Source: an uncultured Lysobacteraceae bacterium
GTDB taxonomy: Bacteria > Pseudomonadota > Gammaproteobacteria > Xanthomonadales > Xanthomonadaceae
Direction: 5' to 3'
DNA: 64,000 bases
Assembly (NCBI GenBank): GCA_902825775.1
Contig: CADECF010000014.1
Location: 62,001 to 126,000 of the forward strand
A program made the position numbers and the translations under genes. The notes beneath the pieces are model-generated. The model was not told where the DNA came from. It saw only the letters and a program-made list of their open reading frames with translations, and made no database searches. Position 1 is the first letter of the stretch; every line of letters starts with the position of its first letter. Below, in pieces: positions 29,391-55,346 of the stretch.

Positions 29391-29408
29391 CTAGGGTCGC
29401 AACTAGGT
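29391..29408 (+). promoter_or_regulatory. CTAGGG box A (T3SS accessory regulon)
   Basis: CTAGGGTCGCAACTAGGT, 92 bp before the ATG at 29501. A TAGCGT hexamer at 29431-29436, 22 bp downstream, may be the -10 element. The same box occurs at four other T3SS-associated units. Confidence 0.65.
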
Positions 29409-29500
29409 ATCGCGCCCGACCTCAGGGGGTTAGCGTGCGGTTAGCGTGAGCGCCGTGCGCCCGCGCGACGGGGGGTTGCCTCGCATTCGGAGGAATAGCC

Positions 29501-30946
29501 ATGGGTTTCGAGCTCCCCAGTCCACTGCTGCCCAAACTACTCAATGGCCTGCTCGGCCAGAATGGCCCCGGTCATGGCCATGGGCCAGGCGGCATCAATG
29601 GCGCCGAAGGCCCCGATAACGACCCCGACAACAGCGCCCATCACGCTCGCCAGGCGGCGCTGCAGAACGAGCGCGCGGCCGAGGCCGGCAACGATCAGGG
29701 CCGCTGGCAGCAATCGGAAGGCGCGAACAACGACGGCGTCCGACGCGGCAATGGCCCGCACGAGGGCCACCATGGTCCGCAGGGACCGGGCAACAGCAGT
29801 TCGGTAGGCAACGGCCATCTTCCGACGCCCGGCGGCGTCCTGTCGGACATCGTGGGCAAAGCCGACGCGGCCGCGCGCGGCCTGCTCGGCGACGGCCCGC
29901 CGGGCCTGGTCGCCAAGGGCGGCGATCTGGCGGCAAACCTGCTCAATCAGGCCGCGCAGACGGTGCAGCAGGCCACGCAAACCGCACAGACGGCAGCGGG
30001 CTTGGCCGCGAAATCGCTGGAAGCCATGCCGTTGGCCAATACCGCCACGGCGGCCAATGCCCTGCTCACCCAGGCCACCGCGCAGGCGCTCAATGCGCCC
30101 GGCGCGCAGGCCCTGGCCGCGCGCAATGCGCTGCACGATGCGGCCAGCGCACCGGTGATCCCGGCGCGCGACGCAGCAGCGCCGCTGCAGATGGCCTCCA
30201 CCAATCCGTTGGCCGGCAGCACGATCGTTCCCGGCGCTTCGCGCGCCGCCGATGCCGCGTTGCTGCAAGGCCGACAGGACCTGCCGATGCCGATGCGTGC
30301 GGAACAGGCCGTCGTCGATCGTTCGGCGAGCGTGCTGCCCGGCAGCAACCCGCCGCCGGCCGCGCCGATCGCCGCCGATACCGCGCGCGCGATTCCGGTG
30401 ATGGCGCCGCCGAGCACGGTGCCGCCATCGCAGACGGCCGCTGCAATGGAAGGCCGCAGCAATCTGATCGGCGGCGGCGGCGACCGCGTCGGTGGCGTGC
30501 CCAAGGCCGCGGACATGGCGCAACCTCAACAAACGCCGCCCGGTCACACCGGCGCCGCACCGACACGCATCGGCCGGCGCGACGAGCAAGCCGGCGAGAG
30601 CCTGGCGCAACGCATGGCGCGCGCACTGATGGCGCTGCTGGGCCTGGCGCCGGCCGAAGCGGACGCACCGGAACTCGATGAGGAAGCACTCGCGCAGGCC
30701 GCGGCGGAAAATCGCTGGCAGCGCCTGCAATGGGTGTTCTGGACGCTCGCCGTCGTGGGTTACGCCTGTCTGGTGTTCGCATTGATCGTGTTCATTCCCG
30801 GCGGCAGCGGCTTCCTGGACGAGACGCGCAATCCGTTCGGCACGCCGGCCTTGATCGTCGGCTTGACCAGCTCGCTGGGCGCGTGGTGGTTCGCGCGCAA
30901 ACTCGCCGCGAATGCCGAGCCTGCGCCGCCGCCGGCATCCGACTAA
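29501..30946 (+). CDS. Gly/Ala-rich T3SS-associated protein with two C-terminal membrane helices (candidate translocator)
   Basis: 481 residues, unrecognised family. The N-terminal ~100 residues are Gly/Asn/His-rich (for example GQNGPGHGHGPGG) and harpin-like; residues ~120-370 are Ala-rich helices with many Gln/Thr, and no Sec signal is present. Two hydrophobic segments lie near the end, about residues 410-432 (WVFWTLAVVGYACLVFALIVF) and 448-467, with a short loop between them. Pore-forming translocators such as HrpF, IpaB and YopB also carry C-terminal hydrophobic hairpins, and this gene opens the T3SS island behind a CTAGGG box, so a translocon or secreted role is inferred. The start is supported by GGAGGAATAGCC before the ATG. 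Confidence is high for the gene, low for function. Confidence 0.6.
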   Translation: MGFELPSPLLPKLLNGLLGQNGPGHGHGPGGINGAEGPDNDPDNSAHHARQAALQNERAAEAGNDQGRWQQSEGANNDGVRRGNGPHEGHHGPQGPGNSSSVGNGHLPTPGGVLSDIVGKADAAARGLLGDGPPGLVAKGGDLAANLLNQAAQTVQQATQTAQTAAGLAAKSLEAMPLANTATAANALLTQATAQALNAPGAQALAARNALHDAASAPVIPARDAAAPLQMASTNPLAGSTIVPGASRAADAALLQGRQDLPMPMRAEQAVVDRSASVLPGSNPPPAAPIAADTARAIPVMAPPSTVPPSQTAAAMEGRSNLIGGGGDRVGGVPKAADMAQPQQTPPGHTGAAPTRIGRRDEQAGESLAQRMARALMALLGLAPAEADAPELDEEALAQAAAENRWQRLQWVFWTLAVVGYACLVFALIVFIPGGSGFLDETRNPFGTPALIVGLTSSLGAWWFARKLAANAEPAPPPASD

Positions 30947-30959
30947 TTCTCAGACGACT

Positions 30960-31675
30960 ACCGGCCCGTCATCCCAGCGAACGCTGGGACCCATCTTGAT
31001 CTAGCCCTTAAGCGAAGGCGGGCATCCAGCGCCTTCGCTCTGGCTCTGTAGGGCGGAGCTCGCTCCGCTGCCCTTTCTTTTCGTAGGTGCGAATGAATTC
31101 GCACCTACCTTTGTAGAGCGGAGCTTGCTCCGCTGCTCTTTGCTTGCGTGTTCTCGCGATCGATGCGATCGCCCGGATCCCTCCTTAGCGCAAATCCGCA
31201 AAAGCCACGTCACCCATAGGCAACGAATCAAAATCTAATGCCTGCGTAAGAAGGTCAACCACGACGAAAGTTCGACCGCCTGCAGCCTTTCAGGCGCTTT
31301 GAATCACATAAGCTTCGGACCCTTTCTTGGTTACTTTCTTTGGGCCAGCAAAGAAATTGGCCCGCGCGTAGCGCGGAAGCTTTTTCCATGGCGCGAGTCC
31401 AGCGCAATTCACCGGTCACGTCGTCCTGGATCGGCGTGCGCCGGGATGACGGCTTTGAGAGCGAGAGCAGCGGGGCAAGCCCCGCTCTACAAAGCGCAGA
31501 GCAAAGTCGCTGGATCCCCGCCTTCGCGGGGGGATGACGGCTTAGGGGCAAGGGCAAAATGGGTCCCAGCGTTCGCTGGGATGACGGCAGAAAAGCGAGT
31601 TGCGCGTTGCGATGACCCCGATCGTTCTCCGTTGTGTCGTGGAGATGACGACGGCGGGCCAGAGTCCACCCTACG
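30960..31675. repeat. Repeat mosaic in the T3SS island
   Basis: No gene was recognised in 30947-31675. It holds GTCATCCCAGCGAACGCTGG (30968 and, inverted, near 31564-31586), several GTAGAGCGGAGCTTGCTCCG hairpins (~31050, 31112, 31475), and a block around 31315-31450 (ACCCTTTTCTTGGTTACTTTC-like, then CGCGAGTCCAGC) that matches, inverted, the block at 21050-21200. Confidence 0.75.
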
Positions 31676-32368
31676 TCAGCGTTTCACCAAGCCGCCGTCG
31701 GTCAGCGCCAGGCGTTTGAGGTCCACGCCCGATTCGAGCAAGTCGCCGCGCACGCTGCGTTGCAGATCCGCCAACTGCGCCGGATTGCTGCCGTTCTTCA
31801 AGGCCTGATATGCGGACCCGGCGAGCATCGTGAGATACGCCGTTCGCTCGGCTTGCGACTGTTTCTGCGCATCGCTCATCTTGGCGATCGACGGCACCGC
31901 GGCCAACGCGCCCGCCAGTTGCCGGCGAACGGCTTTCTGGCCCGCGGGCTGTTCGTTCGAATCCGCGGCGTTGACGATTTCCCAACTGATGACCAGATAC
32001 GCCGCCAGCACATCGCCCAGGTTCTGCGGCGAATAGCCGTAACGCTGCAGCAAGCGGTCGAAGGATTGCATCAACTTGCCCGAGCGGATCGCCGGCGCCA
32101 TTTCCGCGGCGCCGGGTTGCTGGGCCAGATGGGCGATGATCGCTTCGCGTTCGCGTGCGGTCACCGCGGCATCGCGCGAGAACGCCAGCTTGCGCACCGC
32201 ATCCGCGGGCGCCTGCGCAGGCGCCGGCTTGGATAGCGCGGCATCCAACGAAGACCGGAGGTCTTGCGCGGCGGCCGTGCCGGACAGCGCGAGCAGATAC
32301 AAGATGGCCGCCAGCCAAACGCGGCGGCAACGGTACAGGCGCGCGACGCGGCTCACCACTCCACGCAT
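31676..32368 (-). CDS. Secreted helical protein, DUF6683-like
   Basis: 230 residues. A signal peptide or anchor (VWLAAILYLLALSGTAAAQ) is followed by an all-helical domain with YGYSPQNLGDVLAAYLVISWEIVN, which resembles DUF6683 proteins; this match is from memory and not firm. The ATG at 32368 is preceded by CAGGTGCCGGT and overlaps the end of the upstream gene (stop at 32353), so the two are coupled. It lies in the T3SS island, but a Sec signal speaks against type III export. Function unknown. Confidence 0.65.
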   Translation of the reverse strand: MRGVVSRVARLYRCRRVWLAAILYLLALSGTAAAQDLRSSLDAALSKPAPAQAPADAVRKLAFSRDAAVTAREREAIIAHLAQQPGAAEMAPAIRSGKLMQSFDRLLQRYGYSPQNLGDVLAAYLVISWEIVNAADSNEQPAGQKAVRRQLAGALAAVPSIAKMSDAQKQSQAERTAYLTMLAGSAYQALKNGSNPAQLADLQRSVRGDLLESGVDLKRLALTDGGLVKR

Positions 32369-33530: not shown

Positions 33531-34127
33531 TCAACGGCTGCCCGGAGGGCCGCGCAAACGCCGCGAGCGCGAATTCACCACTTCGCTGCGGATCGGGGAA
33601 ACGTCGGCCGACGGCAACGGCGAGCGTTCGCTGTCGGCGGCGTTGATGGTCAATGCGGCCGCTTCCTTGCGGAACCAGGCCAGGGCTTTTTCTTCGCCCT
33701 CGGTCTGCAGGCGGCGGCTGAATTCGATCGCCAGCTGCGACTCGCGGCGTTGCAGCGGCTGCAGCGCCTGGTTGATCTGGCGGATCAGGTCGTTGGCTTC
33801 GCTCTCGCCCATCGCGCCGCTGGATTGGAGCGACTGCACCGCTTCCATCCACACGCTGCGGTCGGCGAACGCCGCGGCCGTCGCACCATGGCTGCCGGCG
33901 CCGGCGATGGCGTCTTCGAACTGCTGCATCAGTGCGTCGCGCGCGTCGCGGTCGAGACTGGGATCGTCCTGCAGCGCGGTGTCGAGCTGGCGCAGGAAAT
34001 CGTCCATGTCCACCTTGCCCGCGCCGCTGCCGTTGGCCTGCGACGTGCCGGTCGCGCGATCCAACATGATCGGCTGTTGCAGCGCAGGCCTCGGATTACC
34101 AGGACGTTGTGGGCGACGCAGGGTCAT
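33531..34127 (-). CDS. T3SS-associated helical protein, GEExAxAW family member 1
   Basis: 198 residues, no signal peptide, largely helical, basic C-terminal tail (RSRRLRGPP). Residues ~93-158 align without gaps over 66 positions to the 99-residue protein encoded at 34375-34674, sharing a Gly, the E-F/Y-x-RR pair, and GEExAxAW. I do not recognise the family outside this window. It is the first gene after CTAGGG box C (80 bp upstream). An effector, chaperone or regulator role is possible; nothing decides between them. The ATG at 34127 has only a weak ribosome site (AACAGCAG). Confidence 0.6.
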   Translation of the reverse strand: MTLRRPQRPGNPRPALQQPIMLDRATGTSQANGSGAGKVDMDDFLRQLDTALQDDPSLDRDARDALMQQFEDAIAGAGSHGATAAAFADRSVWMEAVQSLQSSGAMGESEANDLIRQINQALQPLQRRESQLAIEFSRRLQTEGEEKALAWFRKEAAALTINAADSERSPLPSADVSPIRSEVVNSRSRRLRGPPGSR

Positions 34128-34206
34128 CTGCTGTTCTCGCTTGCGGCCCGGAGAAGAACGCTCAGCGGGCGATGGATCCAGTGTAGGCGCCCGGTAGAGC
34201 GCAACA

Positions 34207-34224
34207 AGCTGGGGGTTACCCTAG
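34207..34224 (-). promoter_or_regulatory. CTAGGG box C
   Basis: On the minus strand CTAGGGTAACCCCCAGCT, 80 bp upstream of the start at 34127. A TACACT hexamer (minus strand, 34180-34185) follows after 21 bp. Confidence 0.65.
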
Positions 34225-34313
34225 CCGGCAGGGGTTCTGCGTAGCGTCAAAACCACGCCTGTAACGAACGAAGAAGCGTTAATTCCATGTGAGCGCGATA
34301 CGCGCATAAACGA

Positions 34314-34899: not shown

Positions 34900-34995
34900 G
34901 TGGATGTCCTCATGTTTTGAAGGTCTGGTCGGCCCGAGAGAAAGGGACCTTTCGAGCGCAATGCCTAGTTTCCGCATCCGTTCAGCGACGCCAAG

Positions 34996-35027
34996 CTAGG
35001 TCGTACCCGACCTAGGGATAGCCCTAT
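34996..35027 (-). promoter_or_regulatory. CTAGGG box B (two overlapping inverted repeats)
   Basis: CTAGGTCG-TACC-CGACCTAG (34996-35015) is a perfect inverted repeat that overlaps ACCTAGGGATAGCCCTAT (35010-35027), which fits the box consensus. It lies ~97-111 bp upstream of the glycine-zipper gene. The -10 spacing seen at the other sites is not clear here. Confidence 0.6.
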
Positions 35028-35073
35028 GGCCGCCGTCGATGCCCGCATCACCGCGCTGCGGGATACTGCGGCC

Positions 35074-38434: not shown

Positions 38435-38509
38435 GGCTTCTCTCCATGCGGCCGAATCGCGCATTTCGCGCGTACTTGTCGATTAAATGCCCTATTTTCC
38501 GGGGATGAC

Positions 38510-38527
38510 AGCTAGGAATGACCCTAG
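38510..38527 (-). promoter_or_regulatory. CTAGGG box D
   Basis: On the minus strand CTAGGGTCATTCCTAGCT, 76 bp upstream of the hydrolase start. A TTTAAT hexamer (38482-38487, minus strand) follows after 22 bp and matches TATAAT at five of six positions. Confidence 0.7.
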
Positions 38528-38541
38528 TGCGCCGGCTTGAT

Positions 38542-39362: not shown

Positions 39363-39382
39363 CGGACTCTCCTTGGGTTCGC

Positions 39383-43783: not shown

Positions 43784-43867
43784 GTCGATCTCCTTGCGTC
43801 TTGTGGCTCGATGCTGCGATTCGTCGTCGCCGGGCGAGGCCCGGCTCGACGATCCGTCAGCCCGCTG

Positions 43868-44200: not shown

Positions 44201-44319
44201 GGTGTTTCTCCTTTAAGTGAGCGCGGCTGGTCGCCGCCGAACTACCGTGAACCCTTGGATCTTTACAACGCTTGCAAACTTCCGGTATTGCAAAAAATCT
44301 TTCCGCTCGGCGCGCGCCG

Positions 44320-45729: not shown

Positions 45730-45740
45730 GGGGGGTTACC

Positions 45741-47813
45741 TCAGGCGTTGATCTGGCCGGCTTGCATGATGCGCAGGTCGGGGGCGAGTTCCTGGTAGGA
45801 CAGCACCGGCAGATCGAAGAAGTCGATTTCCATCAGCTTGCGCAGATGTCTGCGCACATCGAGTGAACATAACAAGACAGGACGCACCGCCTCGGGCTGG
45901 CGCGACAGCTGCGAACGCACTTCGCCGCCGAGCCGCGCGGCCAGTTCCGGCGAGATCGCCAGCTGGCTGGCGCCGCCGGCCACGCGCACCGATTGGCGCA
46001 GGCGATCCTCCAATTCAGGATGGATCATCAGCACATGCAGCGTGCGCTCGTCGTCGGCGTACCGGTCGGCGATCTCGCGCTTGAGCGCGACGCGCACGTA
46101 TTCGGTCAGCAGCACCACATCCTTTTCGCGGCCGCCGACGTCGGTGATCGCTTCGAAGGCATCGCGCAGATTGCGCACCGGCACGCCCTCCTCGGCGAGC
46201 CGGCGCAGCACGTCGGCCACGCGCTGCGGGGCGACCACGCGCAGCATTTCCTTGACCAGGTCCGGGTAGTCTCGCTGCATGCGGGTGAACAGATGCGAGG
46301 TTTCCTGGATGCCGATGAAGCTGCCCAGGCGGCGTTGCAGCGCGCTGCGGCAGTGTTCGGCCAGGGTGTCGAGCGCACCGCGCGTGTCGGCGGTGGGCTC
46401 TTTGACCCATTCGCCCGACAGTGGCGGGAAAAAGCCGGCCGCCTTGGGCGCGTTGCCGTCGCCGACCCGCGCCAGGCGGAAATAGGCATCGTCGCGCACG
46501 CGTCCGAACGCGATCCGCGCGCCGAACGCGCTCAAGCGGTATTCGCCGCGTTCGCGCAGTTTGGGTTCGATGCGCAGCGTAGGTACCGGCACGGGCACGC
46601 CGTATTCCTCGCGCAGCCGCTGCACGATCTCGCCGATGCGTTCGCGCAGCGGCAAATCGCCGACCATCGCCGCCAGCGACGGCGAGATGTCCAATTGCAG
46701 TGGGGCCGGCGGCGCCAAATCGTCTACCTCGACCGTTTTCTCGCCGGTGGGCCGTTCGCCCGCGGGCACGCGGAACGCGCGGCGCAACATCACCGAGCCG
46801 TGGCGATAACGCCAGGCCGACAGTCCGACCAGGGCCAGGCCGAGCAGGCCGAACACCATCTTCGGAAAACCGGGCACGAACACCATCGCCAGCGCCAACA
46901 TGCCGGTGATCAGCATCACCCGCGGCTCGCCGGAGATTTGCCGAGAGATCGCTTCGCCCAGATGGCGGTCGTCCTCTTCGCCGGCCGTCCGCGTCACTAC
47001 CAGGCCTGCGGAGATCGCGGCCAGGATCGCCGGGATCTGCGAGACCAGGCCGTCGCCGATGGTCAGGATGCTGTAGGTATGGGTCGCATCGGCCAGCGAC
47101 ATATCGCGCTGCAAGACGCCGATCGCCAAACCGCCGAGCAGGTTGATGATGATGATGACGATGCCCGCGATCGCATCGCCCTTCACGAACTTCATCGCGC
47201 CGTCCAGGCTGCCGTGCAGCTGGCTTTCCACTTCCAGCAGGCGGCGTTTGCGGCGGGCTTCGTCCTTGTCGATCAGGCCCGAACGCAGGTCCGAATCGAT
47301 CGACAGCTGCTTGCCGGGCATCGCATCCAAAGTAAAGCGCGCGGCCACTTCGGCCACGCGCTCGGCGCCCTTGGCGACCACGATGAACTGGACCACGGTG
47401 ATGATCAGGAACACCACCAGGCCGACGACGAGATTGCCGCCCGCGACCAGGTTGCCGAAGGTGTCGATGATGTGGCCGGCTTCGGCCTCGAGCAGGATCG
47501 AGCGCGTGATCGCGATCGACAGCGACAGCCGGAACAGCGTGGTCAGCAGCAGCACGCTGGGGAAACTGGAGAACGCCACCGGCGTGGGGATGTAGATGGC
47601 CAGCAGCAGCAGGCCGAAGCCGATCGCGATGTTGAATGCGACGAGCGTGTCGATCACCGCCATCGGCAGCGGCAGGATCATCAGCGTGATGATCGTGACC
47701 GCCGCGAAAGCGAGCACCACGTCGCTGTATCCGCCACGGCGCCGCGGGGCGCCTGCGGGCGCCGCAGTCACCGCGCCGAACAGGTCGCGCAGGGGCTTGA
47801 GTCTTACTTCCAT
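45741..47813 (-). CDS. sctV: T3SS export-gate protein SctV
   Basis: 690 residues, the family length. The first ~310 residues contain the membrane helices (VLAFAAVTIITLMILPLPMA and the next ones) and the FHIPEP signatures RFTLDAMPGKQLSIDSDLRS and GAMKFVKGDAIAGIVI; the C-terminal cytoplasmic domain (about 360-690) forms the nonameric ring that receives substrates. First gene of the tightly packed operon that runs to sctP. The ATG at 47813 has only a weak upstream purine run. A 380-bp AT-richer region precedes it. Confidence 0.97.
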   Translation of the reverse strand: MEVRLKPLRDLFGAVTAAPAGAPRRRGGYSDVVLAFAAVTIITLMILPLPMAVIDTLVAFNIAIGFGLLLLAIYIPTPVAFSSFPSVLLLTTLFRLSLSIAITRSILLEAEAGHIIDTFGNLVAGGNLVVGLVVFLIITVVQFIVVAKGAERVAEVAARFTLDAMPGKQLSIDSDLRSGLIDKDEARRKRRLLEVESQLHGSLDGAMKFVKGDAIAGIVIIIINLLGGLAIGVLQRDMSLADATHTYSILTIGDGLVSQIPAILAAISAGLVVTRTAGEEDDRHLGEAISRQISGEPRVMLITGMLALAMVFVPGFPKMVFGLLGLALVGLSAWRYRHGSVMLRRAFRVPAGERPTGEKTVEVDDLAPPAPLQLDISPSLAAMVGDLPLRERIGEIVQRLREEYGVPVPVPTLRIEPKLRERGEYRLSAFGARIAFGRVRDDAYFRLARVGDGNAPKAAGFFPPLSGEWVKEPTADTRGALDTLAEHCRSALQRRLGSFIGIQETSHLFTRMQRDYPDLVKEMLRVVAPQRVADVLRRLAEEGVPVRNLRDAFEAITDVGGREKDVVLLTEYVRVALKREIADRYADDERTLHVLMIHPELEDRLRQSVRVAGGASQLAISPELAARLGGEVRSQLSRQPEAVRPVLLCSLDVRRHLRKLMEIDFFDLPVLSYQELAPDLRIMQAGQINA

Positions 47814-48193
47814 GTCTGACTATCCGCCGGGGGACGGGCGACGCAGTATGCCTTGCGAACCGCAGAACGCAACCCGCAGCGTGCGCTCAGCGGCGCGCTG
47901 CGATGGTTGTTGCAGATGGCGGATCCCCCGGATGCGCTGCTGCGCACCGATTCGGAGAACTGTCGCATGGCGCTGACCTCATCCGTTTCGGAGGCCACCA
48001 TAGCATGCGTTTCGCTGCGGTTTTGCGTATGACGTGCGTTACATTCGCGGCCGTCGATGCGCAACGTTCATCTTTGTATTTGTTTCATATGAAAGCGTTT
48101 CGTTCGAATCCGTTATCGATCAATGGTCCCGCTGTAAACGTTGTGTAATGTCCATGCGATCGGGGCCAATTCTTCACGCGCGCATGACGGGCG
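47814..48193 (-). promoter_or_regulatory. AT-richer intergenic region upstream of sctV
   Basis: 380 bp without a recognisable gene. The part near 48050-48150 is clearly richer in A/T than its surroundings and contains the perfect palindrome TTTCATATGAAA (48083-48094). No CTAGGG box is present. It probably carries the promoter for the sctV operon. Confidence 0.5.
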
Positions 48194-48622
48194 TTACTGA
48201 AATAAACGTTCGCTTGAAGCGGACGGCGCGGCGGATGGGTTCTTCACATCTTCCGCTTGCGGTGCGATATCGTCTGGCTGCAGTTGTGTGATCAGGCTCA
48301 AGGATTGGGCGCTGACGCCGACCGCGAACACGCGACCCGCGCGCGTGCGGACCAGTACGATACGTTCACGCGGACCCACCGGCAGCACCTGCACGATCGA
48401 CAGTGATGCATCGCGGCCGGTGATCCCGTAACGTCGCCGGGCGAGATGCAGGACTACGAACAGGGCCGCGATCACCGCCGCAAGCGGCAGCACGATGGCC
48501 AGCAGTTCGCCGACGAAGGAAGGCTTGGCCTGCGCCGCGGCAGGCGCCGCGCCAGCAAGCCCCGACCACGCGAGGCAGGCGATGGCGGGGAGGATTCTGC
48601 GGAAGATGAGGGAAGAGGTCAT
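48194..48622 (-). CDS. FliO-like protein in the T3SS island
   Basis: 142 residues. A signal-peptide-like N-terminus (LPAIACLAWSGLAGAAPA) is followed by a membrane helix (about 38-60, ELLAIVLPLAAVIAALFVVLHLA) and a cytoplasmic FliO-type domain: LSIVQVLPVGPRERIVLVR, VFAVGVSAQSLSLI. FliO helps assemble FliP (SctR homologue) pores in flagella, and non-flagellar T3SS normally lack it. Here it is upstream of sctV on the same strand and divergent from the kinase-sctQRST operon. The assignment of the domain is good; the role as an SctR assembly factor is inferred. Confidence 0.8.
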   Translation of the reverse strand: MTSSLIFRRILPAIACLAWSGLAGAAPAAAQAKPSFVGELLAIVLPLAAVIAALFVVLHLARRRYGITGRDASLSIVQVLPVGPRERIVLVRTRAGRVFAVGVSAQSLSLITQLQPDDIAPQAEDVKNPSAAPSASSERLFQ

Positions 48623-48768
48623 GGCAGACGGATACGACAGGAAGGGATGCAGGATGCAGGCAGGCCGCGAACGTCACGGCGCCGACATGGCGCCCGGCTA
48701 CCGTAGCAGGGTGTCGATAAAGGGCAACTTCGCGCGACCGGAGCGGCCGCGCATGCGCGGTATCGGCC

Positions 48769-49914
48769 ATGGGTGAACTGCGGCCAGGCGCTGCGGTCGC
48801 GGACAAACCCGCCCCAGCGGCCGCAACGCGCGCATCCAAGCGCAAGACGCCCGCGCGGGCCGGCGGCGATGCTGCGCCGCCTTTCGTCGCATGGCTGGAC
48901 GCGGTGCCCTTCGCCTGCGCCGCCTACGCGCACGATGACGGCGCGCTGGTTGCGGCCAACCGCCGCTTCATGGACGAATTCGGCGAATTGCCCGAACACA
49001 CGCAGCGCGAACGGCTGCTGCGCGGCCTGCACGGCGACGGCAGCGCCGATCCGCAGCCGATCGAAGTGCACGCCCCGCACAATGGCCGTTGGTACGCGCT
49101 GCATTGGGGCGCGCTGCCGTCGGACGACGGCGCGCTGGCTCTGCTGACCGCGGTCGACATCAGCGAGCGCATCGAAACCCTCGACTCTCACAAGACGCAG
49201 CAGGAGAAGTTGCTTTTCACCTCGCGCCTGATGTCGGTCGGCGAGATGGCCGCGACGCTGGCGCACGAATTGAACCAGCCGCTGGCCGCGATCGTGAATT
49301 ATCTCAACGGCAGTCTGCGCCTGGTCGACCAGGCGGGCGGTCCGGTGCAGGTCGAGCGCGCGCTGCACGCCGCGCGCGCGCAGGCCGAACATGCCAGTGC
49401 GGTGATCTCTCGGGTGCGCGAGTTCGTGCGCGCGCGCGAACCCCGGCGCGACGCGCACGAGCTGGCCACGATCGCCGGCACCGTGCTGGAACTGCTGCGG
49501 CTGGAAGCCGAGCGCCTGCAACTGCGCATCGACCTGGCGCTGGCGCCGGCCTTGCCGGCGGTCTACGCCGACCGGGTGATGGTCGAGCAGGTGCTGCTCA
49601 ACCTGGTCAAGAACGCGATCGAAGCCATGCGCGAAGTGCCTGCGGCGCAGCGCGAACTGCGCGTCGAAGGCCGCGTCAATCTGGACGGCGAAATCGAAGT
49701 GCGCGTCTGCGACCGCGGCCACGGCCTCAGCGCGCAGGACCAGGACCAGCTGTTTTCGCCGTTCTTCACCACCAAGACCGACGGCCTGGGCATCGGCCTG
49801 GCCATCTGCCGCTCGATCATCGAATACCACGAGGGCCGTTTGTTCTTCGAGCCGCGCGACGGCGGCGGCAGCGTATTCGGTTTCACCTTGCCGCGCGCCG
49901 ATGGCCGCGCCTGA
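48769..49914 (+). CDS. Soluble PAS sensor histidine kinase of the T3SS locus
   Basis: 381 residues with no membrane helix. A Lys/Ala-rich N-terminus, a PAS-like domain (about 40-135; FACAAYAHDDGALVAANRRF), then HisKA with H166 in TLAHELNQPLAAIVNYLNG, and HATPase motifs NLVKNAIEAM, CDRGHGLS and GLGIGLAICRSI. The kinase core is of the FixL/DctB (HPK4) type. It lies 22 bp before a FixJ/NarL-type regulator and upstream of sctQRST on the same strand, so it is probably transcribed with them. The input signal is unknown; no heme-binding His was recognised. Confidence 0.9.
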   Translation: MGELRPGAAVADKPAPAAATRASKRKTPARAGGDAAPPFVAWLDAVPFACAAYAHDDGALVAANRRFMDEFGELPEHTQRERLLRGLHGDGSADPQPIEVHAPHNGRWYALHWGALPSDDGALALLTAVDISERIETLDSHKTQQEKLLFTSRLMSVGEMAATLAHELNQPLAAIVNYLNGSLRLVDQAGGPVQVERALHAARAQAEHASAVISRVREFVRAREPRRDAHELATIAGTVLELLRLEAERLQLRIDLALAPALPAVYADRVMVEQVLLNLVKNAIEAMREVPAAQRELRVEGRVNLDGEIEVRVCDRGHGLSAQDQDQLFSPFFTTKTDGLGIGLAICRSIIEYHEGRLFFEPRDGGGSVFGFTLPRADGRA

Positions 49915-49936
49915 GCCGCGACGGAGGGCATGACCG

Positions 49937-50539
49937 ATGCAGGAAGCGCGCGTGTACCTGGTCGACGACAACGACGGCTTCCGCGATTCGACCGCGTGGC
50001 TGCTGCAGACCGCCGGCTTCGAGACGCTGGCCTACGCCTCGGGCGCGGAATTCATCGCCGCCTACACCGGCGAACGCCACGGCGAGACCGCCGAATGCCT
50101 GATTTCCGATATCCGCATGCCGCAAATGAGCGGGCTGCAGCTGCAGGACGAACTGCAGCGCCGCGGCTGCGCCCTGCCGCTGGTGTTCGTGACCGCGCAC
50201 GGCGACGTGCCGCTGGCGGTGGAAGCGATGCGCAAAGGCGCTTCGAATTTCATCGAGAAGCCTTTCGGCGACGACACCCTGATCGAAGCGATCCGCACCG
50301 CGATCGCCAGCGCGCGCAACGGCGCCGGCGGCGGCGCGCAGGGCGAACGCCTGGCGCTGCTCAGTCCGCGCGAACGGCAGGTGCTCGACCTGGTGGTGGC
50401 CAGCAAACCTAACAAAATCATCGCCGACATTCTCGGCATCAGCATCAAAACCGTGGAACTGCATCGCTCGAACATGATGAACAAACTCGGTGTACGCTCG
50501 CTGCCCGAACTGATGAAGGTGGCCCTGGGTCATGGTTGA
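49937..50539 (+). CDS. FixJ/NarL-type response regulator of the T3SS locus
   Basis: 200 residues. Receiver domain with phospho-acceptor D58 (CLISDIRMPQMSG) and a conserved Lys in FIEKPFGDD, then a LuxR-type HTH (LSPRERQVLDLVV; ISIKTVELHRSNMMNKLGV). The last bases overlap the ATG of sctQ (50532), so the regulator and the export apparatus genes are translationally coupled. It is the best candidate for the protein that binds the CTAGGG boxes and activates the accessory units; no binding evidence exists in the sequence itself. Confidence 0.92.
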   Translation: MQEARVYLVDDNDGFRDSTAWLLQTAGFETLAYASGAEFIAAYTGERHGETAECLISDIRMPQMSGLQLQDELQRRGCALPLVFVTAHGDVPLAVEAMRKGASNFIEKPFGDDTLIEAIRTAIASARNGAGGGAQGERLALLSPRERQVLDLVVASKPNKIIADILGISIKTVELHRSNMMNKLGVRSLPELMKVALGHG

Positions 50540-51647
50540 AGCCGCCAGCAAGAAACCGCGCGAAGCCGCGGGCAAAGCCAAAGCCGCACGCGTCGAAGTA
50601 CCGACCGGCGGATTGCGCGGACGCATCCCCTCGTTGCTGCCGGCGCAAGCCGAAACGCTGCGATATTTCTTCGCCGCGCCCGAACGCTGGGCGCTGCGCG
50701 ACGGCGGCGTACTGCGTTTCGGATACGGCGATGCCGCCATCGCCGGCGAAACTTTCGAGCTCGAATCCGACGGCGTGAGGCTGGGGCTTCGGCTCGACGC
50801 CGCCGATGCGGCGCATGGCGACGACGGTTTGCAATGGAGCGACTACCAGGGCCGTTCGCGCCTGCTGGCGTGGACGCTGGCGCACGAAGCGCAGCTGATC
50901 CGCCTCAGCGATGCGCTGGGCGTGCCGCTGCTGCCGGTGGAAGGCGGCGACGCGCCCGATCCGCAAGCGTCGGCGCGCGATCCCGACCTGTGGCTTTCGT
51001 TCTCGATCGAGGACGCAGGCCGCGACGCCACCCGCGGCCTGCTGCGCCTGCCCTGCTCGTGGATCGACCGGCTGCTGGATCGCGCCGATCAGGTCTACGC
51101 CGACGACCCGCTGCCCGAACTCGCGCAGTGGCAGCAATTGCCCGTACCGATTTCGATCCGCCTCGCAGGCCCGAAATTGCGCAGCGCCGATTGGCGCGCG
51201 TTACGCCCGGGCGACGTGATCGTCGTCGGCACGCGCGGCCGCGTACCGTCGCCGCAGGCTTACGCATCCGATCGCCGCTGGCCGCTGGCCGGCGGCGCCG
51301 AGGGTTGGCGCATCGATGGGCCGCCCCAACCCGTTTCCGTACCGCAGGAGAGTTCCGCGATGAACGACAACGAAGTCAATGCCGAAATGGCCGATGCCGG
51401 ATCCGGCGCCGAAGCCGTCGCGCAACCGAGCGCGCACAACCTGCCGGTGAACGTGGAGTTCGATCTGGGCCGCGTGCAGTTGAGCGTGGGCGAGCTGGCG
51501 AATCTGCAGCCGGGCTACGTGTTCGCGCTGCCGGCGCATCTGGAAGGCGCCAACGTCACCATCCGCACCAACGGCCGCATCGCCGGCCGCGGCGAAATGG
51601 TCGCCGTCGGCGACACGCTCGGCGTGCGCCTGCTGTCCTGGAGCTGA
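50532..51647 (+). CDS. sctQ: T3SS sorting-platform protein SctQ
   Basis: 371 residues. The C-terminal SPOA domain (about 305-370; NLPVNVEFDLGRVQLSVGEL, then NVTIRTNGRIAGRGEMVAVG) matches SctQ/FliN. The N-terminal part (about 20-280) is the poorly conserved first half, with a second SPOA-like region near 215-260 (ISIRLAGPKLRSADWRALRP). Possible internal start ATG at 51360 (MNDNEVNAEM), preceded by CAGGAGAGTTCCGCG, could yield the separate C-terminal SctQ-C product known in other T3SS. SctQ links SctL/SctN to the injectisome base. The start overlaps the regulator gene by 8 bp. Confidence 0.9.
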   Translation: MVEAASKKPREAAGKAKAARVEVPTGGLRGRIPSLLPAQAETLRYFFAAPERWALRDGGVLRFGYGDAAIAGETFELESDGVRLGLRLDAADAAHGDDGLQWSDYQGRSRLLAWTLAHEAQLIRLSDALGVPLLPVEGGDAPDPQASARDPDLWLSFSIEDAGRDATRGLLRLPCSWIDRLLDRADQVYADDPLPELAQWQQLPVPISIRLAGPKLRSADWRALRPGDVIVVGTRGRVPSPQAYASDRRWPLAGGAEGWRIDGPPQPVSVPQESSAMNDNEVNAEMADAGSGAEAVAQPSAHNLPVNVEFDLGRVQLSVGELANLQPGYVFALPAHLEGANVTIRTNGRIAGRGEMVAVGDTLGVRLLSWS

Positions 51648-51650
51648 GGC

Positions 51651-52649
51651 ATGGATTTCAGCACCTTTTCTCCGGCGCTGGTCCTCGTCACCGTCGTCAG
51701 CCTGGCGCTGGCGCCGTTCGTGGCGGTGATGGTGACCTCGTTCACCAAGATAGTGGTGGTGCTCAGCCTGCTGCGCAATGCGCTGGGCCTGCAGCAGGTG
51801 CCGCCGAACGTGGTGATCAACGGCCTGGCGATCGTGTTGTCGATTTACGTGATGTATCCGGTGCTGCTGGACACGCACGCCGCGATCAACGCGCGCATGG
51901 AAGGCAAGCCGATGCCGGCCTCGATCCAGGCGCAGATCGATGCGCGCCTGCAGGCGCGGGCGAAGGCGGCCGGCACGGCGACAGCCGCATCGGCCGCGAC
52001 CACCACGCCGCCGCCGGCAACGCCCGCGGAAGCGAACCAGACCGCGATCGGCGCGCAGCCGGTCAATGCGCCGACCAGCCCGGCCGCGGCCGACGCGTTG
52101 CAGGCCGAAGCCGATGCGCGCATCGCGCAGCCTGGCGCGCCGCGCGATCCGTTGTCGGCGGAAGACGCCGCCGCGCCCGCGCCGGTCGAAGCCGCGCCGC
52201 GCGAAACCACCGCGTCGTCGCCCGCGCCGCCGCCGCTGCCCAAGGGCGGCAAGATGGACACCGAACGCCTGCTGGCCCTGGTCGAAGCCGGCAAGGAACC
52301 GCTGCGTACGTTCCTGATCGAGCACTCCAGCAATGCCGAGCGCAGCTTCTTCCTGAAGAGCGCGCAACGTTTGCTGCCGCCGGCGCGGCGCGGCGATTTG
52401 AGCGTGGACGATTTCATCGTGGTGGTGCCGGCATTTACCGTCAGCGAATTGACCGCGGCGTTCCAGATCGGCTTCCTGATCTTCCTGCCGTTCCTGATCA
52501 TCGATCTGGTGGTGGCCAACATCTTGTTGGCGCTGGGCATGATGATGATGTCGCCGACCACGGTGTCGCTGCCGTTCAAGCTGCTGTTGTTCGTGCTGAT
52601 CGACGGCTGGGCCAAGCTGGTGCATGGCTTGGTGCTGACTTACGGCTGA
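51651..52649 (+). CDS. sctR: T3SS export-gate protein SctR with a ~100-residue Ala/Pro-rich insertion
   Basis: 332 residues versus ~215-220 typical for SctR. The N-terminal signature (FVAVMVTSFTKIVVVLSLLR, ALGLQQVPPNVVINGLAIVL) and the C-terminal part (FQIGFLIFLPFLIIDLVVAN and MGMMMMSPTTVSLPFKLLLF-like) are standard. Between about residues 101 and 200 lies a low-complexity Ala/Thr/Pro-rich stretch (for example AASAATTTPPPATPAEANQT), in the periplasmic loop after the second helix. The frame is open throughout, so this is an in-frame expansion. Only 3 bp separate it from sctQ. The SctS gene follows after a repeat insertion. Confidence 0.95.
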   Translation: MDFSTFSPALVLVTVVSLALAPFVAVMVTSFTKIVVVLSLLRNALGLQQVPPNVVINGLAIVLSIYVMYPVLLDTHAAINARMEGKPMPASIQAQIDARLQARAKAAGTATAASAATTTPPPATPAEANQTAIGAQPVNAPTSPAAADALQAEADARIAQPGAPRDPLSAEDAAAPAPVEAAPRETTASSPAPPPLPKGGKMDTERLLALVEAGKEPLRTFLIEHSSNAERSFFLKSAQRLLPPARRGDLSVDDFIVVVPAFTVSELTAAFQIGFLIFLPFLIIDLVVANILLALGMMMMSPTTVSLPFKLLLFVLIDGWAKLVHGLVLTYG

Positions 52650-52660
52650 TTTTGACGTTC

Positions 52661-52770
52661 TTCCCCCTTTGAAAAAGGGGGATCGAGGGGGATTTGCTTT
52701 TGCTTTTAAAGGACAACAACAAGAGCAAGAGCAAATCCCCCGTGGCCCCCTTTTTCAAAGGGGGCAACAG
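52661..52770. repeat. CCCCC/GGGGG inverted repeat pair between sctR and sctS
   Basis: CCCCCTTTGAAAAAGGGGG with GATTTGCTTTTGCTTTTAAA (52663-52706) and the inverse GAGCAAATCCCCC...CCCCCTTTTTCAAAGGGGG (52727-52768) enclose a ~20-bp A-rich spacer. Same family as the repeats around the DUF559 gene at 3.8 kb, but without a gene inside. It interrupts the otherwise tight sctQRST operon. Confidence 0.85.
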
Positions 52771-52791
52771 CAACAACAAAGGCATCGCGCG

Positions 52792-53061
52792 ATGAACGAA
52801 GTACTCGAACTCACCAAACAGGCCTTGTGGCTGACCCTGATCCTGTCCGGCCCGCCGATCGCCGCAGCCTCGATCGTCGGCCTGGCGGTCGCGTTCCTGC
52901 AGGCGGCGACGCAGTTGCAGGAGCAGACCTTCGCCTATACGGTGAAGTTCGTGGTGATCGTGATCACGCTGTTCGTCACCGCCTCGCTCATCGGCGGCAC
53001 GCTCTACACCTACGCCGACCGCATCTTCGTCGACTTCCCGGGGCTGGTGCACCGCGGATGA
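52792..53061 (+). CDS. sctS: T3SS export-gate protein SctS
   Basis: 89 residues, two membrane helices (LTLILSGPPIAAASIVGLAVAF and VKFVVIVITLFVTASLIGG-like) around the conserved QAATQLQEQTFAY loop. It packs with SctR and SctT to form the export channel. The ATG at 52792 comes directly after the repeat pair, with only a weak ACAAAGG upstream; the TGA overlaps the ATG of sctT by 4 bp. Confidence 0.96.
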   Translation: MNEVLELTKQALWLTLILSGPPIAAASIVGLAVAFLQAATQLQEQTFAYTVKFVVIVITLFVTASLIGGTLYTYADRIFVDFPGLVHRG

Positions 53062-53846
53062 ACGCATTCGATCCGGTCGGCAACGCGATGCTCGCGCTGG
53101 GGCTGACCCTGCCGCGCATCATCGGCGCGTTCGTCATGCTGCCGCTGCTGACTTCGGAAAACATGCCGGCAATGGTGCGCAACAGTTTTCTGGTCAGCCT
53201 GGCGATCGTGGCGCTGCCGGTGGCGATGGCCGGCGCGCCGATCGAGATGATGGGCACGTTCCAGTGGGGCCCGATGGTGCTGAAGGAGTTGTTCCTGGGC
53301 ATCTGCATCGGACTGTGCTTCGGTATCATCTTCTGGGCGCTGGGCGCGGCCGGCAGCGTGATCGACACGCAGGTCGGGCTGGGCATGGCGCAGGTGTTCG
53401 ATCCGGTGCAAGGCCACCAGACCTCGTTGCACGGGCAGTTCCTGTCGCAGCTGGCGGCATGGCTGTTCATGGCCAGCGGCGCTTTCCTGGTGTTCCTGGA
53501 TCTGCTGTTGTCGAGCTACACGCTGTGGCCGGTGACCTCGTATTTCCCGAACATGCACATCGGCGGCATGCATCTTTTCATCGGCCAGTTCAGCTTCCTG
53601 ATGACCGCGTTGCTGGTGCTGGCCGCGCCGGCGATGGTGGTGCTGCTGCTGGTCGATCTCGCGTTCGGCCTGGTCAACCGTTACGCGCCGCAGCTGAACG
53701 TGTTCGCGTTGACGTTGCCGATCAAGGCATGGCTCGCCACCGCCATGATCCTGCTGATGCTGGGCGTGTACGTGGAGCTCGTGCTGAAGCGCCTGGCCGA
53801 CAACAGCGGTCTGCTGGATGCGCTGCGCCGCGCCTTCGGCGGGTAG
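53058..53846 (+). CDS. sctT: T3SS export-gate protein SctT
   Basis: 262 residues, SctT/FliR family with multiple membrane helices. Conserved segments: LPRIIGAFVMLPLLTSENMP, ELFLGICIGLCFGIIFWALG, GSVIDTQVGLGMAQVFDPVQGHQTS-like, and LLVDLAFGLVNRYAPQLNVF. It completes the SctR-S-T export gate. Translation is coupled with sctS (ATGA overlap at 53058-53061). It is convergent with sctU, with repeats between the stops. Confidence 0.95.
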   Translation: MNAFDPVGNAMLALGLTLPRIIGAFVMLPLLTSENMPAMVRNSFLVSLAIVALPVAMAGAPIEMMGTFQWGPMVLKELFLGICIGLCFGIIFWALGAAGSVIDTQVGLGMAQVFDPVQGHQTSLHGQFLSQLAAWLFMASGAFLVFLDLLLSSYTLWPVTSYFPNMHIGGMHLFIGQFSFLMTALLVLAAPAMVVLLLVDLAFGLVNRYAPQLNVFALTLPIKAWLATAMILLMLGVYVELVLKRLADNSGLLDALRRAFGG

Positions 53847-53847
53847 C

Positions 53848-53976
53848 GGCTTTTGTGGGAGCGGCTTTTGTGGGAGCGGCTTCAGCCGCGAGCTCTTGAT
53901 CTGGATTCGGATGCTTGAAAAGCTCGCGGCTGAAGCCGCTCCCACAAAAGCCGCTCCCACAAAAGCCGCACCTACG
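53848..53976. repeat. Palindromic repeat cluster between sctT and sctU
   Basis: Tandem GTGGGAGCGGCTTTT arms, a GTGGGAGCGGCTTCAGCCGC arm, a short spacer, and the inverse arms. It separates the convergent sctT and sctU stops and may end both transcripts. Confidence 0.85.
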
Positions 53977-53981
53977 AAAAG

Positions 53982-55052
53982 CTATTCGTCGCCGGGCCCG
54001 CGCCGCACCGTCTCCGCCCAATGCAGCACCTGCGCCACGGCTTCGAAGAATTCGTTGTGGATGTAGTCGTCCAACTCGACCTTCTCGTTGAGCCCGCGCG
54101 CCAATTCGATGTTCTGCAGGATCGGCACGCCCGCTTCCTCGGCGGTTTTCTTGATCAGTTCGGCCAGATGCTCCTCGCCCTTGGCCACGACCACCGGCAG
54201 GTCGGTGACGCCCTGTTCGTATTGCAGCGCGATCGCGATGTGGGTGGGATTGGTCACGACGACGTTCGATCCGCGTACGGCATTGAGCATGTTCTGCTGC
54301 GACCATTCTTGGTGCAACTGGCGGCGGCGCGATTTGATGTAGGGGTCACCTTCGTTTTCCTTCACTTCCTGGCGGATGTCGCGCCGGCTCATGCGCAACT
54401 GCTTGAGGTACGAGAACTTCTGGTACGAGGCGTCCAGCACCGAGACGAAGAAGAACACGAAGATCGTCCAAATGCCGATCTGCATCAAACCCTGCCAGAT
54501 CGCGGTGCCCATCGCCGCCGGCGGCGCGTACGGCAGCTGCATCAGCTCCGGCAACAGCCCGCGCAGCACCAGGAACCCGATGAACAGCAACGCCGCGCTT
54601 TTGCCGATCGACTTGACCAGTTCGACCAGATTGTCCATCGAGAACATCTTTTTGATGCCCTCGGCGGGATTGAGTTTGGACAGGTCGGGTTTGATCTTGG
54701 CGAAGGTGGCGATCGGCCCGACCTGCAGGAACTCCACCACCACGCCCAGGAATACCGCCAACGCCAGCAGCGGCAGGGTCAGCCACAGCAACGCATCCAG
54801 AGCGGATATCGCGAGCCGCTGCACGGCGTCGTTGAAAGGCAGCTGGATCGCCTCGAGGCTCTGTTCGAACAACGCGGCGATGCGCGCATACATGAATCCC
54901 ATCAACAGCCAGGCGCCGACCAGCCAGCCGAGCACGAGCACGGTGCTGGTCAGCTCCTTGCTCTTGCTGACGTTGCCTTCCTTGCGCGCGTCCCTGAGCT
55001 TTTTGGCGGTGGGCTGCTCGGTCTTGTCGGCGCCCTTGTCCTTGGATGCCAT
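53982..55052 (-). CDS. sctU: T3SS switch protein SctU (autocleaving export-gate protein)
   Basis: 356 residues from the ATG at 55052 (MASKDKGADKTEQPTAKKLRD is the usual N-terminus; an in-frame upstream stretch is repeat-derived). Four membrane helices (for example LTLPLLALAVFLGVVVEFLQ, IWTIFVFFFVSVLDASY) precede a cytoplasmic domain with the self-cleaving motif NPTH in VVVTNPTHIAIAL. Cleavage there switches export specificity from rod/needle to later substrates. sctU is detached from sctRST and encoded on the opposite strand, in a transcription unit of its own. Confidence 0.96.
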   Translation of the reverse strand: MASKDKGADKTEQPTAKKLRDARKEGNVSKSKELTSTVLVLGWLVGAWLLMGFMYARIAALFEQSLEAIQLPFNDAVQRLAISALDALLWLTLPLLALAVFLGVVVEFLQVGPIATFAKIKPDLSKLNPAEGIKKMFSMDNLVELVKSIGKSAALLFIGFLVLRGLLPELMQLPYAPPAAMGTAIWQGLMQIGIWTIFVFFFVSVLDASYQKFSYLKQLRMSRRDIRQEVKENEGDPYIKSRRRQLHQEWSQQNMLNAVRGSNVVVTNPTHIAIALQYEQGVTDLPVVVAKGEEHLAELIKKTAEEAGVPILQNIELARGLNEKVELDDYIHNEFFEAVAQVLHWAETVRRGPGDE

Positions 55053-55116
55053 GCCATGGCCTGCCGAACGGGTCGGATCGCAGGCTAGCATGGCGTTGTG
55101 GACGATTCGTTCATCT

Positions 55117-55238
55117 GTGGGAGCGGCTTTTTTTGTGGGAGCGGCTTCAGCCGCGAGCTTTTCCCGACCTTCAGGGACCTGAATGGCGTGGCCAACGAAA
55201 GAGCTCGCGGCTGAAGCCGCTCCCACAAAAAAAGCCGC
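55117..55238. repeat. Palindromic repeat pair upstream of sctU
   Basis: GTGGGAGCGGCTTTTTTTGTGGGAGCGGCTTCAGCCGC arms and their inverse around a ~40-bp spacer, between the divergent sctU and box-E unit. Confidence 0.85.
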
Positions 55239-55244
55239 TGCGAC

Positions 55245-55262
55245 CTAGGGCTAGCCCGAGAT
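55245..55262 (+). promoter_or_regulatory. CTAGGG box E
   Basis: CTAGGGCTAGCCCGAGAT, 84 bp before the ATG at 55347, with a TACATT hexamer at 55285-55290 after 22 bp. The preceding CGAC (CGACCTAGGG) is shared with boxes A and B. Confidence 0.65.
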
Positions 55263-55346
55263 GGCGGCGGCGGGCCTGCGGCGTTACATTTCCGTCATCT
55301 CCGCGATTGCGCCCGCCCGACAGGAACCCTTGGTATTTCAAGCCCG

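What the first reader, a model, noticed from the sequence alone, without database searches (positions are those of the whole stretch)
29391..55290. An 18-bp CTAGGG inverted-repeat box marks five T3SS accessory units, with fixed spacing to a -10-like hexamer
Seen directly: CTAGGGTCGCAACTAGGT (29391+), CTAGGGTAACCCCCAGCT (34224-), overlapping CTAGGTCG-N4-CGACCTAG and ATAGGGCTATCCCTAGGT (34996-35027), CTAGGGTCATTCCTAGCT (38527-) and CTAGGGCTAGCCCGAGAT (55245+). Each lies ~75-110 bp upstream of the first start codon of a unit of the island. At four sites the next promoter-like hexamer follows after 21 or 22 bp: TAGCGT, TACACT, TTTAAT and TACATT. A repeat centred ~30 bp before the -10 would lie at about -42, a class II activator position. 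I did not find the box upstream of the core sct operons. This looks like an undescribed regulon signal.
Basis: partly seen in the sequence, partly recalled or inferred. Interest (0 to 1): 0.85.

Follow-up and report, generated by a model that had tools for sequence, protein, structure and literature searches.

The report
Promoter box of a scattered secretion-effector regulon
A 20-base palindrome in front of certain genes marks a genome-wide set of genes, many resembling injected proteins, that is enriched in Luteimonas and Lysobacter relatives only when they also carry this type III secretion machine and its built-in two-component regulator, so it gives a practical way to look for what the machine secretes.

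Summary
The box is real and broader than the finding says: a 20-bp palindrome, core CTAGGG-N4-CCCTAG. Five copies lie in the window (shuffles expect 0.56); 16 sites with at most one mismatch lie in the whole genome. Eleven of the 12 outside the window sit 52-98 bp before scattered genes, several effector-like (M91 protease, RNase A-like, lipase-like, Vps62-like, LysM). In 43 orientable sites of five genomes, TAnnnT follows 21-23 bp after the box in 24; the mirrored side has none.

Among 297 family genomes, the 39 with this T3SS (SctV) are exactly the 39 with the island's FixJ-type regulator. All 39 carry 2-18 boxes (mean 9.5); the other 258 average 0.39. One target family occurs only in T3SS genomes (14 of 14).

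Best explanation: an activator site at about -44 for a dispersed T3SS effector regulon, bound by the island's own response regulator. Binding, activation and secretion are inferred. Closest precedent: SsrB of Salmonella. Eight literature searches listed no paper whose title or abstract describes this box.

The parts
29389..29408 (+). box 1 ACCTAGGGTCGCAACTAGGT, 92 bp before ORF 29501
   Evidence: 21.5 bits (a training site)
29431..29436 (+). -10-like TAGCGT, 22 bp after box 1
   Evidence: this class of spacing tested
29501..30946 (+). box-1 gene, 481 aa, no Pfam or NCBIfam family; secreted T3SS protein is a guess
   Evidence: function inferred
34207..34226 (-). box 2 GGCTAGGGTAACCCCCAGCT, 79 bp before ORF start 34127
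34180..34185 (-). -10-like TACACT, 21 bp after box 2
33531..34127 (-). first gene of the box-2 unit, 198 aa, unknown (weak FIMAH match below cut-off)
35010..35029 (-). box 3 CCATAGGGCTATCCCTAGGT
34994..35013 (-). second, overlapping palindrome (CTAGGTCG-N4-CGACCTAG core 34996-35015), 14.4 bits
34678..34899 (-). box-3 gene, small glycine-zipper-like protein (match below Pfam cut-off)
38510..38529 (-). box 4 CACTAGGGTCATTCCTAGCT, 25.3 bits (a training site)
38482..38487 (-). -10-like TTTAAT, 22 bp after box 4
36959..38464 (-). box-4 gene, LysM/M23 protein (SLT match below cut-off); related proteins in three other genomes also behind a box
55243..55262 (+). box 5 ACCTAGGGCTAGCCCGAGAT; box above 13 bits at this place in 34 of 36 relatives
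55285..55290 (+). -10-like TACATT, 22 bp after box 5, conserved in a 20-sequence alignment
55347..55685 (+). first gene of the conserved box-5 unit, 112 aa
55739..56419 (+). second gene of the box-5 unit, 226 aa, 70-94% identity to 30 homologues, no known fold found
44240..44259 (-). degenerate box (8.4 bits) before the needle-like gene; clear box at this place in 17 of 46 relatives
43868..44200 (-). needle-like (SctF-type, by position and size) gene
   Evidence: name inferred
48769..49914 (+). histidine kinase of the island (HisKA + HATPase)
49937..50539 (+). FixJ-type response regulator (receiver + GerE helix-turn-helix), proposed binder of the box
   Evidence: binding inferred
38652..55226 (.). 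core type III secretion genes (sctP,O,N,L,J,D,V,Q,R,T,U) around the regulator

Best explanation
The box is the activator-binding site of a dispersed type III secretion regulon. A dimer of the FixJ-type response regulator encoded in the sct island (49937-50539), phosphorylated by the neighbouring kinase (48769-49914), binds the 6-4-6 palindrome centred at about -44, overlapping or abutting the -35 region, and recruits RNA polymerase to promoters that have a -10-like hexamer 21-23 bp further on. Targets are a few island units (accessory or secreted proteins and, in some relatives, the needle operon) plus scattered single genes, many of them effector-like: 11 off-window ORFs in this genome, 2-18 strict boxes per T3SS-positive genome. 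SHOWN by computation: the box, its spacing, its conservation, its enrichment only in genomes with this T3SS and regulator, and secretion-type N-termini of its targets. INFERRED: that this regulator is the binder, that it activates, that the hexamer is the -10, and that the targets are T3SS substrates.
For: Five window sites vs 0.56 expected. Genome-wide 2 perfect and 14 one-mismatch sites. The spacing giving 6-4-6 holds 16 of 80 exact CTAGGG-Nk-CNAG rows (two palindromes counted twice), at most 7 at any other k. TAnnnT at +21/22/23 in 8, 14 and 2 of 43 orientable sites, mirror side 0. RR and SctV occur in the same 39 of 297 genomes; boxes 2-18 there, mean 0.39 in 258 others, p 3.5e-30, contrast kept inside three genera. 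Box 5 kept in 34 of 36 relatives, with its -10. One target family is found in 14 genomes, all T3SS-positive, with a box about 100 bp upstream in 12 of 12 fetched, 11.1-25.6 bits. Target N-termini are richer in P/S/T/Q and poorer in hydrophobics than 141 control ORFs (p 2.5e-9, 7.1e-10). The RR is the only helix-turn-helix transcription factor recognised in 30 proteins scanned between 28073 and 57766. Precedents: StyR activates from about -40 (PMC2442086, passages); SsrB uses a 7-4-7 palindrome before T3SS effector genes (PMC2837388, passages).
Against: No binding or expression data. RR and T3SS are perfectly co-inherited, so co-occurrence cannot single out the RR; the 47 loci were fetched with the RR as query, so its presence there is by construction. 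28 of 71 sites were left out of the -10 count (7 had starts on both sides, 21 none in 40-110 bp) and 19 of the 43 used lack TAnnnT at 21-23. Some sites are probably chance (L017 in this genome; one before an mreB-like gene in G172). No box above 11 bits was found before the HK/RR genes. One T3SS-less genome (G067) has 10 box-like sites; 6 of the 7 listed are one repeated sequence. In some needle promoters the hexamer lies about 26 bp away. The lipase-like target family is not restricted to T3SS genomes (97 of 297): its widespread subfamily lacks the box in T3SS-less genomes (0 of 20) and equally in T3SS-positive ones (0 of 14), so the box follows the subfamily and this is no clean test. An ECF sigma factor (20146-20766) lies in the window outside the island. 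FixJ homologues of Krumholzibacteriia have box-like sites in only 2 of 13 loci.
Confidence: 0.75

Rival explanations
1. Same regulon, different binder: another dimeric regulator (LuxR-solo, CRP/FNR or an unlinked factor) gained and lost with the T3SS binds the box, and the HK/RR pair acts above it or elsewhere.
For: The 20-bp length and the -44 position also fit lux boxes and class II CRP/FNR sites (recalled). No box above 11 bits before HK/RR. Co-inheritance is complete and cannot separate linked candidates. A CadC-like regulator gene (L009:411-2774) lies beside one off-island box.
Against: No other helix-turn-helix transcription factor was recognised in the 30 proteins scanned between 28073 and 57766; an unlinked factor would need the same distribution in 297 genomes. 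I did not search for such a factor genome-wide.
Confidence: 0.2
2. The box is a repressor operator: the protein keeps these promoters silent outside the target environment.
For: The box abuts or overlaps the expected -35 position, where a bound protein could also block polymerase.
Against: The 21-23 bp spacing to the hexamer is the geometry of class II activation, and I saw no recurrent -35 hexamer between box and -10; operators usually tolerate variable placement (recalled).
Confidence: 0.1
3. Targets are general secreted or antibacterial proteins under a regulator that merely travels with the T3SS, not T3SS substrates.
For: Some targets have RTX repeats, LysM/M23, a CdiA-CT-type RNase or DD-peptidase domains, and relatives of the lipase-like targets exist in T3SS-less genomes.
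Against: Another target family is found only in T3SS genomes (14 of 14), and target N-termini are polar and P/S/T/Q-rich, unlike Sec signals.
Confidence: 0.2
4. Chance or a dispersed repeat without function.
For: Inverted repeats lie next to two boxes, and G067 shows that a repeat can mimic the pattern.
Against: Shuffles, spacing peak, -10 spacing, footprints and the T3SS-linked distribution.
Confidence: 0.01

Closest known systems
SsrB box of Salmonella SPI-2 (SsrA-SsrB; PMC2837388, passages read)
   Same: Two-component response regulator tied to a T3SS; palindrome with a 4-bp spacer (7-4-7); site in front of island operons and scattered effector genes.
   Different: Half-sites differ (here CTAGGG, strongly kept); spacing to the promoter is nearly fixed here but not strict for SsrB; here present across Luteimonas, Lysobacter and kin with a FixJ-like regulator.
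StyR site STY2 (PMC2442086, abstract and passages read)
   Same: FixJ-type response regulator (1yio, which I recall to be StyR, is the second-best solved match) activating from about -40.
   Different: Single catabolic operon, not a T3SS regulon; half-sites recalled as ATAAAC-N4-GTTTAT, a different sequence in the same 6-4-6 layout.
hrp box (HrpL), PIP box (HrpX), tts box (TtsI) (recalled; search listings only)
   Same: Cis-elements used to list T3SS effector genes.
   Different: Bound by a sigma factor, an AraC-type and an OmpR-type regulator respectively; motifs unrelated to a CTAGGG palindrome (recalled).
T3SS cluster of Lysobacter (PMC4657364, PMC13163355; passages read)
   Same: Same cluster type; secretin absent from the cluster; an HK/RR pair noted in the second paper.
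   Different: The passages read report no promoter box; the 2015 paper found no effectors related to those of animal and plant pathogens, the 2026 paper predicted four next to the cluster.

Membership tests
NarL/FixJ response regulators | receiver domain plus C-terminal GerE (LuxR-type) helix-turn-helix | tested here: met
   PF00072 2.3e-24, PF00196 1.5e-19; match over residues 4-198 to FixJ 5xso and 5-194 to 1yio
FixJ proper (NCBIfam NF006900 equivalog) | score over curated cut-off | tested here: not met
   210.1 vs cut-off 255
TtrR (NF040749 equivalog) | score over curated cut-off | tested here: not met
   144.2 vs 290
SsrB-type T3SS regulon | two-component regulator encoded with the T3SS | tested here: met
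   sct genes beside HK and RR in all 47 loci fetched by the RR; RR and SctV in the same 39 of 297 genomes
SsrB-type T3SS regulon | palindrome with 4-bp spacer before island units and scattered effector-like genes | tested here: met
   'effector-like' rests on domains and N-termini
SsrB-type T3SS regulon | regulator shown to bind and activate through the palindrome | not testable with these tools
   needs binding and expression assays
class II activator promoter | site centred about -40 to -45 with fixed spacing to the -10 | tested here: met
   if the hexamer is the -10 (24 of 43 sites); start sites not mapped
HrpX/PIP-box regulon | TTCGB repeats before T3SS genes (recalled) | not tested
   no PIP-box scan was run
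lux box / LuxR-AHL | AHL-binding LuxR-type protein tied to the box | not tested
   no genome-wide LuxR search was run; only proteins scanned were checked
T3SS effector genes | secretion through the T3SS | not testable with these tools
   indirect only:

The most novel reading that the evidence does not exclude
A dedicated regulatory code of Lysobacteraceae: one FixJ-type two-component system inside a T3SS island without its own secretin controls, through a single 6-4-6 box at a fixed promoter position, a changing set of 2-18 scattered effector genes, so that genes are drawn into or out of the injected arsenal by gaining or losing a 20-bp box.
Probability: 0.55. Interest if true: 0.8.

Novelty: new variant of a known kind. 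Interest (0 to 1): 0.74.

Why it matters
The T3SS of Lysobacter has been on record for a decade without a secretin gene in its cluster; the 2015 comparative study found no effectors related to those of animal and plant pathogens (PMC4657364, passages). A box tightly linked to this T3SS turns effector discovery in Luteimonas, Lysobacter and kin into a pattern search, and supplies a testable regulator. That bears on how these soil and biocontrol bacteria meet fungi, oomycetes or protists.

Tried and rejected
Island-only regulon: rejected, since 12 of the 16 genome sites with at most one mismatch lie outside the window. Chance: rejected. Box absent from all core sct operons: rejected for the family (17 of 46 relatives have one before the needle-like gene), true for this window apart from a degenerate copy.

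A gene-family 'natural experiment' (lipase-like family boxed only where the T3SS exists) was first read and then withdrawn. On re-checking, the unboxed homologues of T3SS-less genomes (0 of 20) belong to a widespread subfamily, at most 53% identical and aligned mostly from residue 40 on, that is unboxed in T3SS-positive genomes too (0 of 14). Of six longer homologues from T3SS-positive genomes in the same call, four have a box of 18.5-25.2 bits and two only 11.0-bit sites (one of these also a 12.8-bit site elsewhere in the stretch).

Proof of the regulator through distant FixJ homologues: Krumholzibacteriia looked promising in two genomes but only 2 of 13 loci had box-like sites; kept as a lead. 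Structure of the conserved 226-aa product of the box-5 unit: helical model (mean pLDDT 74.6), best Foldseek match E 0.95; no function assigned. Plasmid-borne relatives of the RR: 72 records, all under 60% identity. Literature: eight searches listed 2 to 20 papers each, several cut from longer hit lists (e.g. 15 of 48); none describes this box by title or abstract. Passages of six papers were read. Most subscription journals are not covered.

Limits of my counts: the weight matrix was trained on 17 sites of the window's genome, picked by me from the hits, so scores of those sites are not independent; the pattern counts do not use it. Counts were typed by hand into. Gene starts are mechanical ORF calls. 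Homologue fetches were best-scoring hits only (12 of 14 matches; 12 of the matches in 97 genomes); the T3SS-less set was 20 of 58 such genomes. The four extra genomes were chosen by me from the T3SS-positive ones. SctV was sought at E 1e-250, so other T3SS types would not be seen.
Full report
WHAT WAS CHECKED. Written as CTAGGG-N4-CCCTAG with at most two mismatches, the window holds exactly these five; dinucleotide shuffles give 0.56 on average and never more than 2 in 100. The looser 18-letter pattern with three mismatches is a poor test, since 87 hits stand against 58 expected. Aligning the sites shows a 20-bp palindrome, ACCTAGGG-N4-CCCTAGGT-like; GGG (positions 6-8), C15, A17 and G18 are invariant in my 17 training sites, oriented by me.

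WHERE IT LIES. The window is part of contig C14 of a 3.76-Mb genome. Its regulator is 92% identical to that of Luteimonas cucumeris, so the genome is Luteimonas-like. The window holds a type III secretion island: proteins of the SctV, D, J, L, N, O, P, Q, R, T and U kinds were recognised by Pfam (some, such as O, P and L, only below the curated cut-off), with a histidine kinase and a FixJ-type response regulator between SctV and SctQ. In all 47 Lysobacteraceae loci fetched with the regulator as query, sctV, the FliO-like gene, the kinase and sctQ stand beside it.

GENOME-WIDE. One search gives 2 perfect and 14 one-mismatch sites in the genome (each listed on both strands). The control pattern read backwards is not a fair rate, because it contains GATC instead of CTAG. 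I therefore used spacing as an internal control: among exact CTAGGG-Nk-CNAG rows, k = 6 (the 6-4-6 layout) has 16 of 80, the other 20 values average 3.2 and reach at most 7. Two palindromic places are counted twice in the 16, at least one of the 16 (C3:48351) lies inside a predicted gene, and the site at C14:117245 was listed only under a k = 0 reading. In the window's genome, 11 of 12 off-window sites lie 52-98 bp before ORFs. Their products include an M91 'effector' metallopeptidase, an RNase A-like toxin domain, lipase-like, Vps62-like and LysM proteins, and several without Pfam match. The twelfth (L017) lies inside a predicted ORF. One of the 11 (L009) precedes a protein with a hydrophobic start, which does not look like an effector.

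PROMOTER GEOMETRY. I fetched the sites with at most one mismatch in four more T3SS-positive genomes (two genera): 71 sites in five genomes. 43 have start codons 40-110 bp away on one side only; 7 have them on both sides and 21 on none, and these 28 were not used. Oriented towards the gene, TAnnnT begins 21, 22 or 23 bp after the 20-mer in 8, 14 and 2 of 43. All other offsets from 0 to 49 together give 10, and the mirrored upstream side gives 0 at 21-23 and 10 in all. If the hexamer occupies -12 to -7, the box centre lies at -43.5 or -44.5, against or over the -35 region; I saw no recurrent -35 hexamer. This is the geometry of class II activation.

CONSERVATION. A box above 13 bits lies between sctU and the 55347 unit in 34 of the 36 relatives whose locus covers that unit; L067 reaches 11.4 and L069 nothing. 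In an alignment of 20 of these, box and TACATT-like hexamer are conserved, while the spacer drifts in sequence and hardly in length. A second place is upstream of the needle-like gene: 14.5 bits or more in 17 of 46 relatives, and 8.4 bits in the window. In several of these the TAGAGT-like hexamer lies about 26 bp away, so the spacing is not identical there.

DISTRIBUTION TEST. In 297 genomes of the family, one search finds the response regulator at 75% identity or more in 39; six further hits at 44-48% were not counted as orthologues. SctV (E at most 1e-250) is found in exactly the same 39. Box counts: 39 of 39 positive genomes have at least 2 (mean 9.5); 11 of 258 negative genomes have at least 2 (mean 0.39); Mann-Whitney p 3.5e-30. 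Relatedness inflates such a p value, so I repeated it inside genera: g16 10-15 versus 0-2, g29 2-18 versus 0, g4 3-4 versus 0-1. The one strong outlier among negatives, G067 with 10, shows one repeated sequence in 6 of the 7 places listed.

TARGETS. Downstream proteins cluster across the five genomes: a lipase-like family (7 proteins, four genomes), LysM/M23 (4), M91 (3), DD-peptidase-like (3), an unknown family (3) and others; many are singletons. The unknown family (L011:3131-4090) exists in 14 of 297 genomes, all T3SS-positive. The 12 fetched all have a box about 90-120 bp upstream, down to 41% protein identity, at 11.1 to 25.6 bits. The lipase-like family is broader, with 97 genomes, 39 of them T3SS-positive. 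Its 12 best homologues, all from T3SS-positive genomes, have the box at 15.7-21.9 bits. Homologues in 20 of the 58 T3SS-less genomes have none (best 9.6 bits), but neither do 14 members of that same widespread subfamily in T3SS-positive genomes (best 9.6). So the box marks T3SS-specific branches of the family, and the comparison does not show box loss with T3SS loss. Against 141 control ORFs of the same stretches, 42 target N-termini have more P/S/T/Q (0.36 vs 0.23), fewer hydrophobic residues (0.20 vs 0.30) and more proline runs (6 of 42 vs 1 of 141). That is the composition expected of T3SS signals (recalled), not of Sec signals.

THE REGULATOR. It is a NarL/FixJ-type protein whose best solved relatives are FixJ 5xso and 1yio, which I recall to be StyR; it is below the NCBIfam cut-offs for FixJ and TtrR. 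StyR activates from a site about -40 (PMC2442086, passages), and its half-sites are recalled to have the same 6-4-6 layout. SsrB uses a 7-4-7 palindrome before island and scattered effector genes, without strict spacing to the start (PMC2837388, passages). No other helix-turn-helix transcription factor was recognised in the 30 proteins scanned between 28073 and 57766; an ECF sigma factor lies at 20146-20766, outside the island. This makes the regulator the best candidate, but co-inheritance cannot prove it. I found no box above 11 bits before its own gene, and box-like sites near distant homologues were found in only 2 of 13 loci.

WHAT IS KNOWN. Lysobacter T3SS clusters were described in 2015 without a secretin and without effectors related to those of animal and plant pathogens (PMC4657364, passages). 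In 2026 an HK/RR pair and four predicted effectors next to the cluster were noted in L. antibioticus Hz25 (PMC13163355, passages). My eight searches listed no description of a promoter box by title or abstract.

VERDICT. It works like the SsrB regulon; membership is not claimed, because binding was not testable. Novel as a cis-element and regulon as far as my searches reach; a new variant of a known kind.

Noticed in passing
window 38652-55226; G000 C6:77781 and C2:10461: No secretin was recognised among the island proteins scanned; the genome has only two secretin-family matches, both on other contigs, as reported for Lysobacter.
   Followed up: partly
window 38555-38636 and 55117-55244: Large REP-like inverted repeats (GTGGGAGCGGCTTcAGCCGCGAGC...) lie directly beside boxes 4 and 5.
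   Followed up: no
L074 10633 and 10654; L075 961: Box-like palindromes, in L074 two copies 21 bp apart, between a FixJ-type regulator gene and a chemoreceptor gene in two Krumholzibacteriia; absent in 11 of 13 related loci.
   Followed up: partly
window 55739-56419: A 226-aa protein with 70-94% identity to 30 homologues and no known family or fold, in the most conserved box unit.
   Followed up: partly
   Followed up: no
window 48194-48622: A FliO-like gene stands between SctV and the kinase, unusual to my knowledge for a non-flagellar T3SS.
   Followed up: no
window 20146-24210: An ECF sigma factor gene followed by a Ser/Thr kinase-TPR gene, about 5 kb before box 1 and outside the island.
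   Followed up: no
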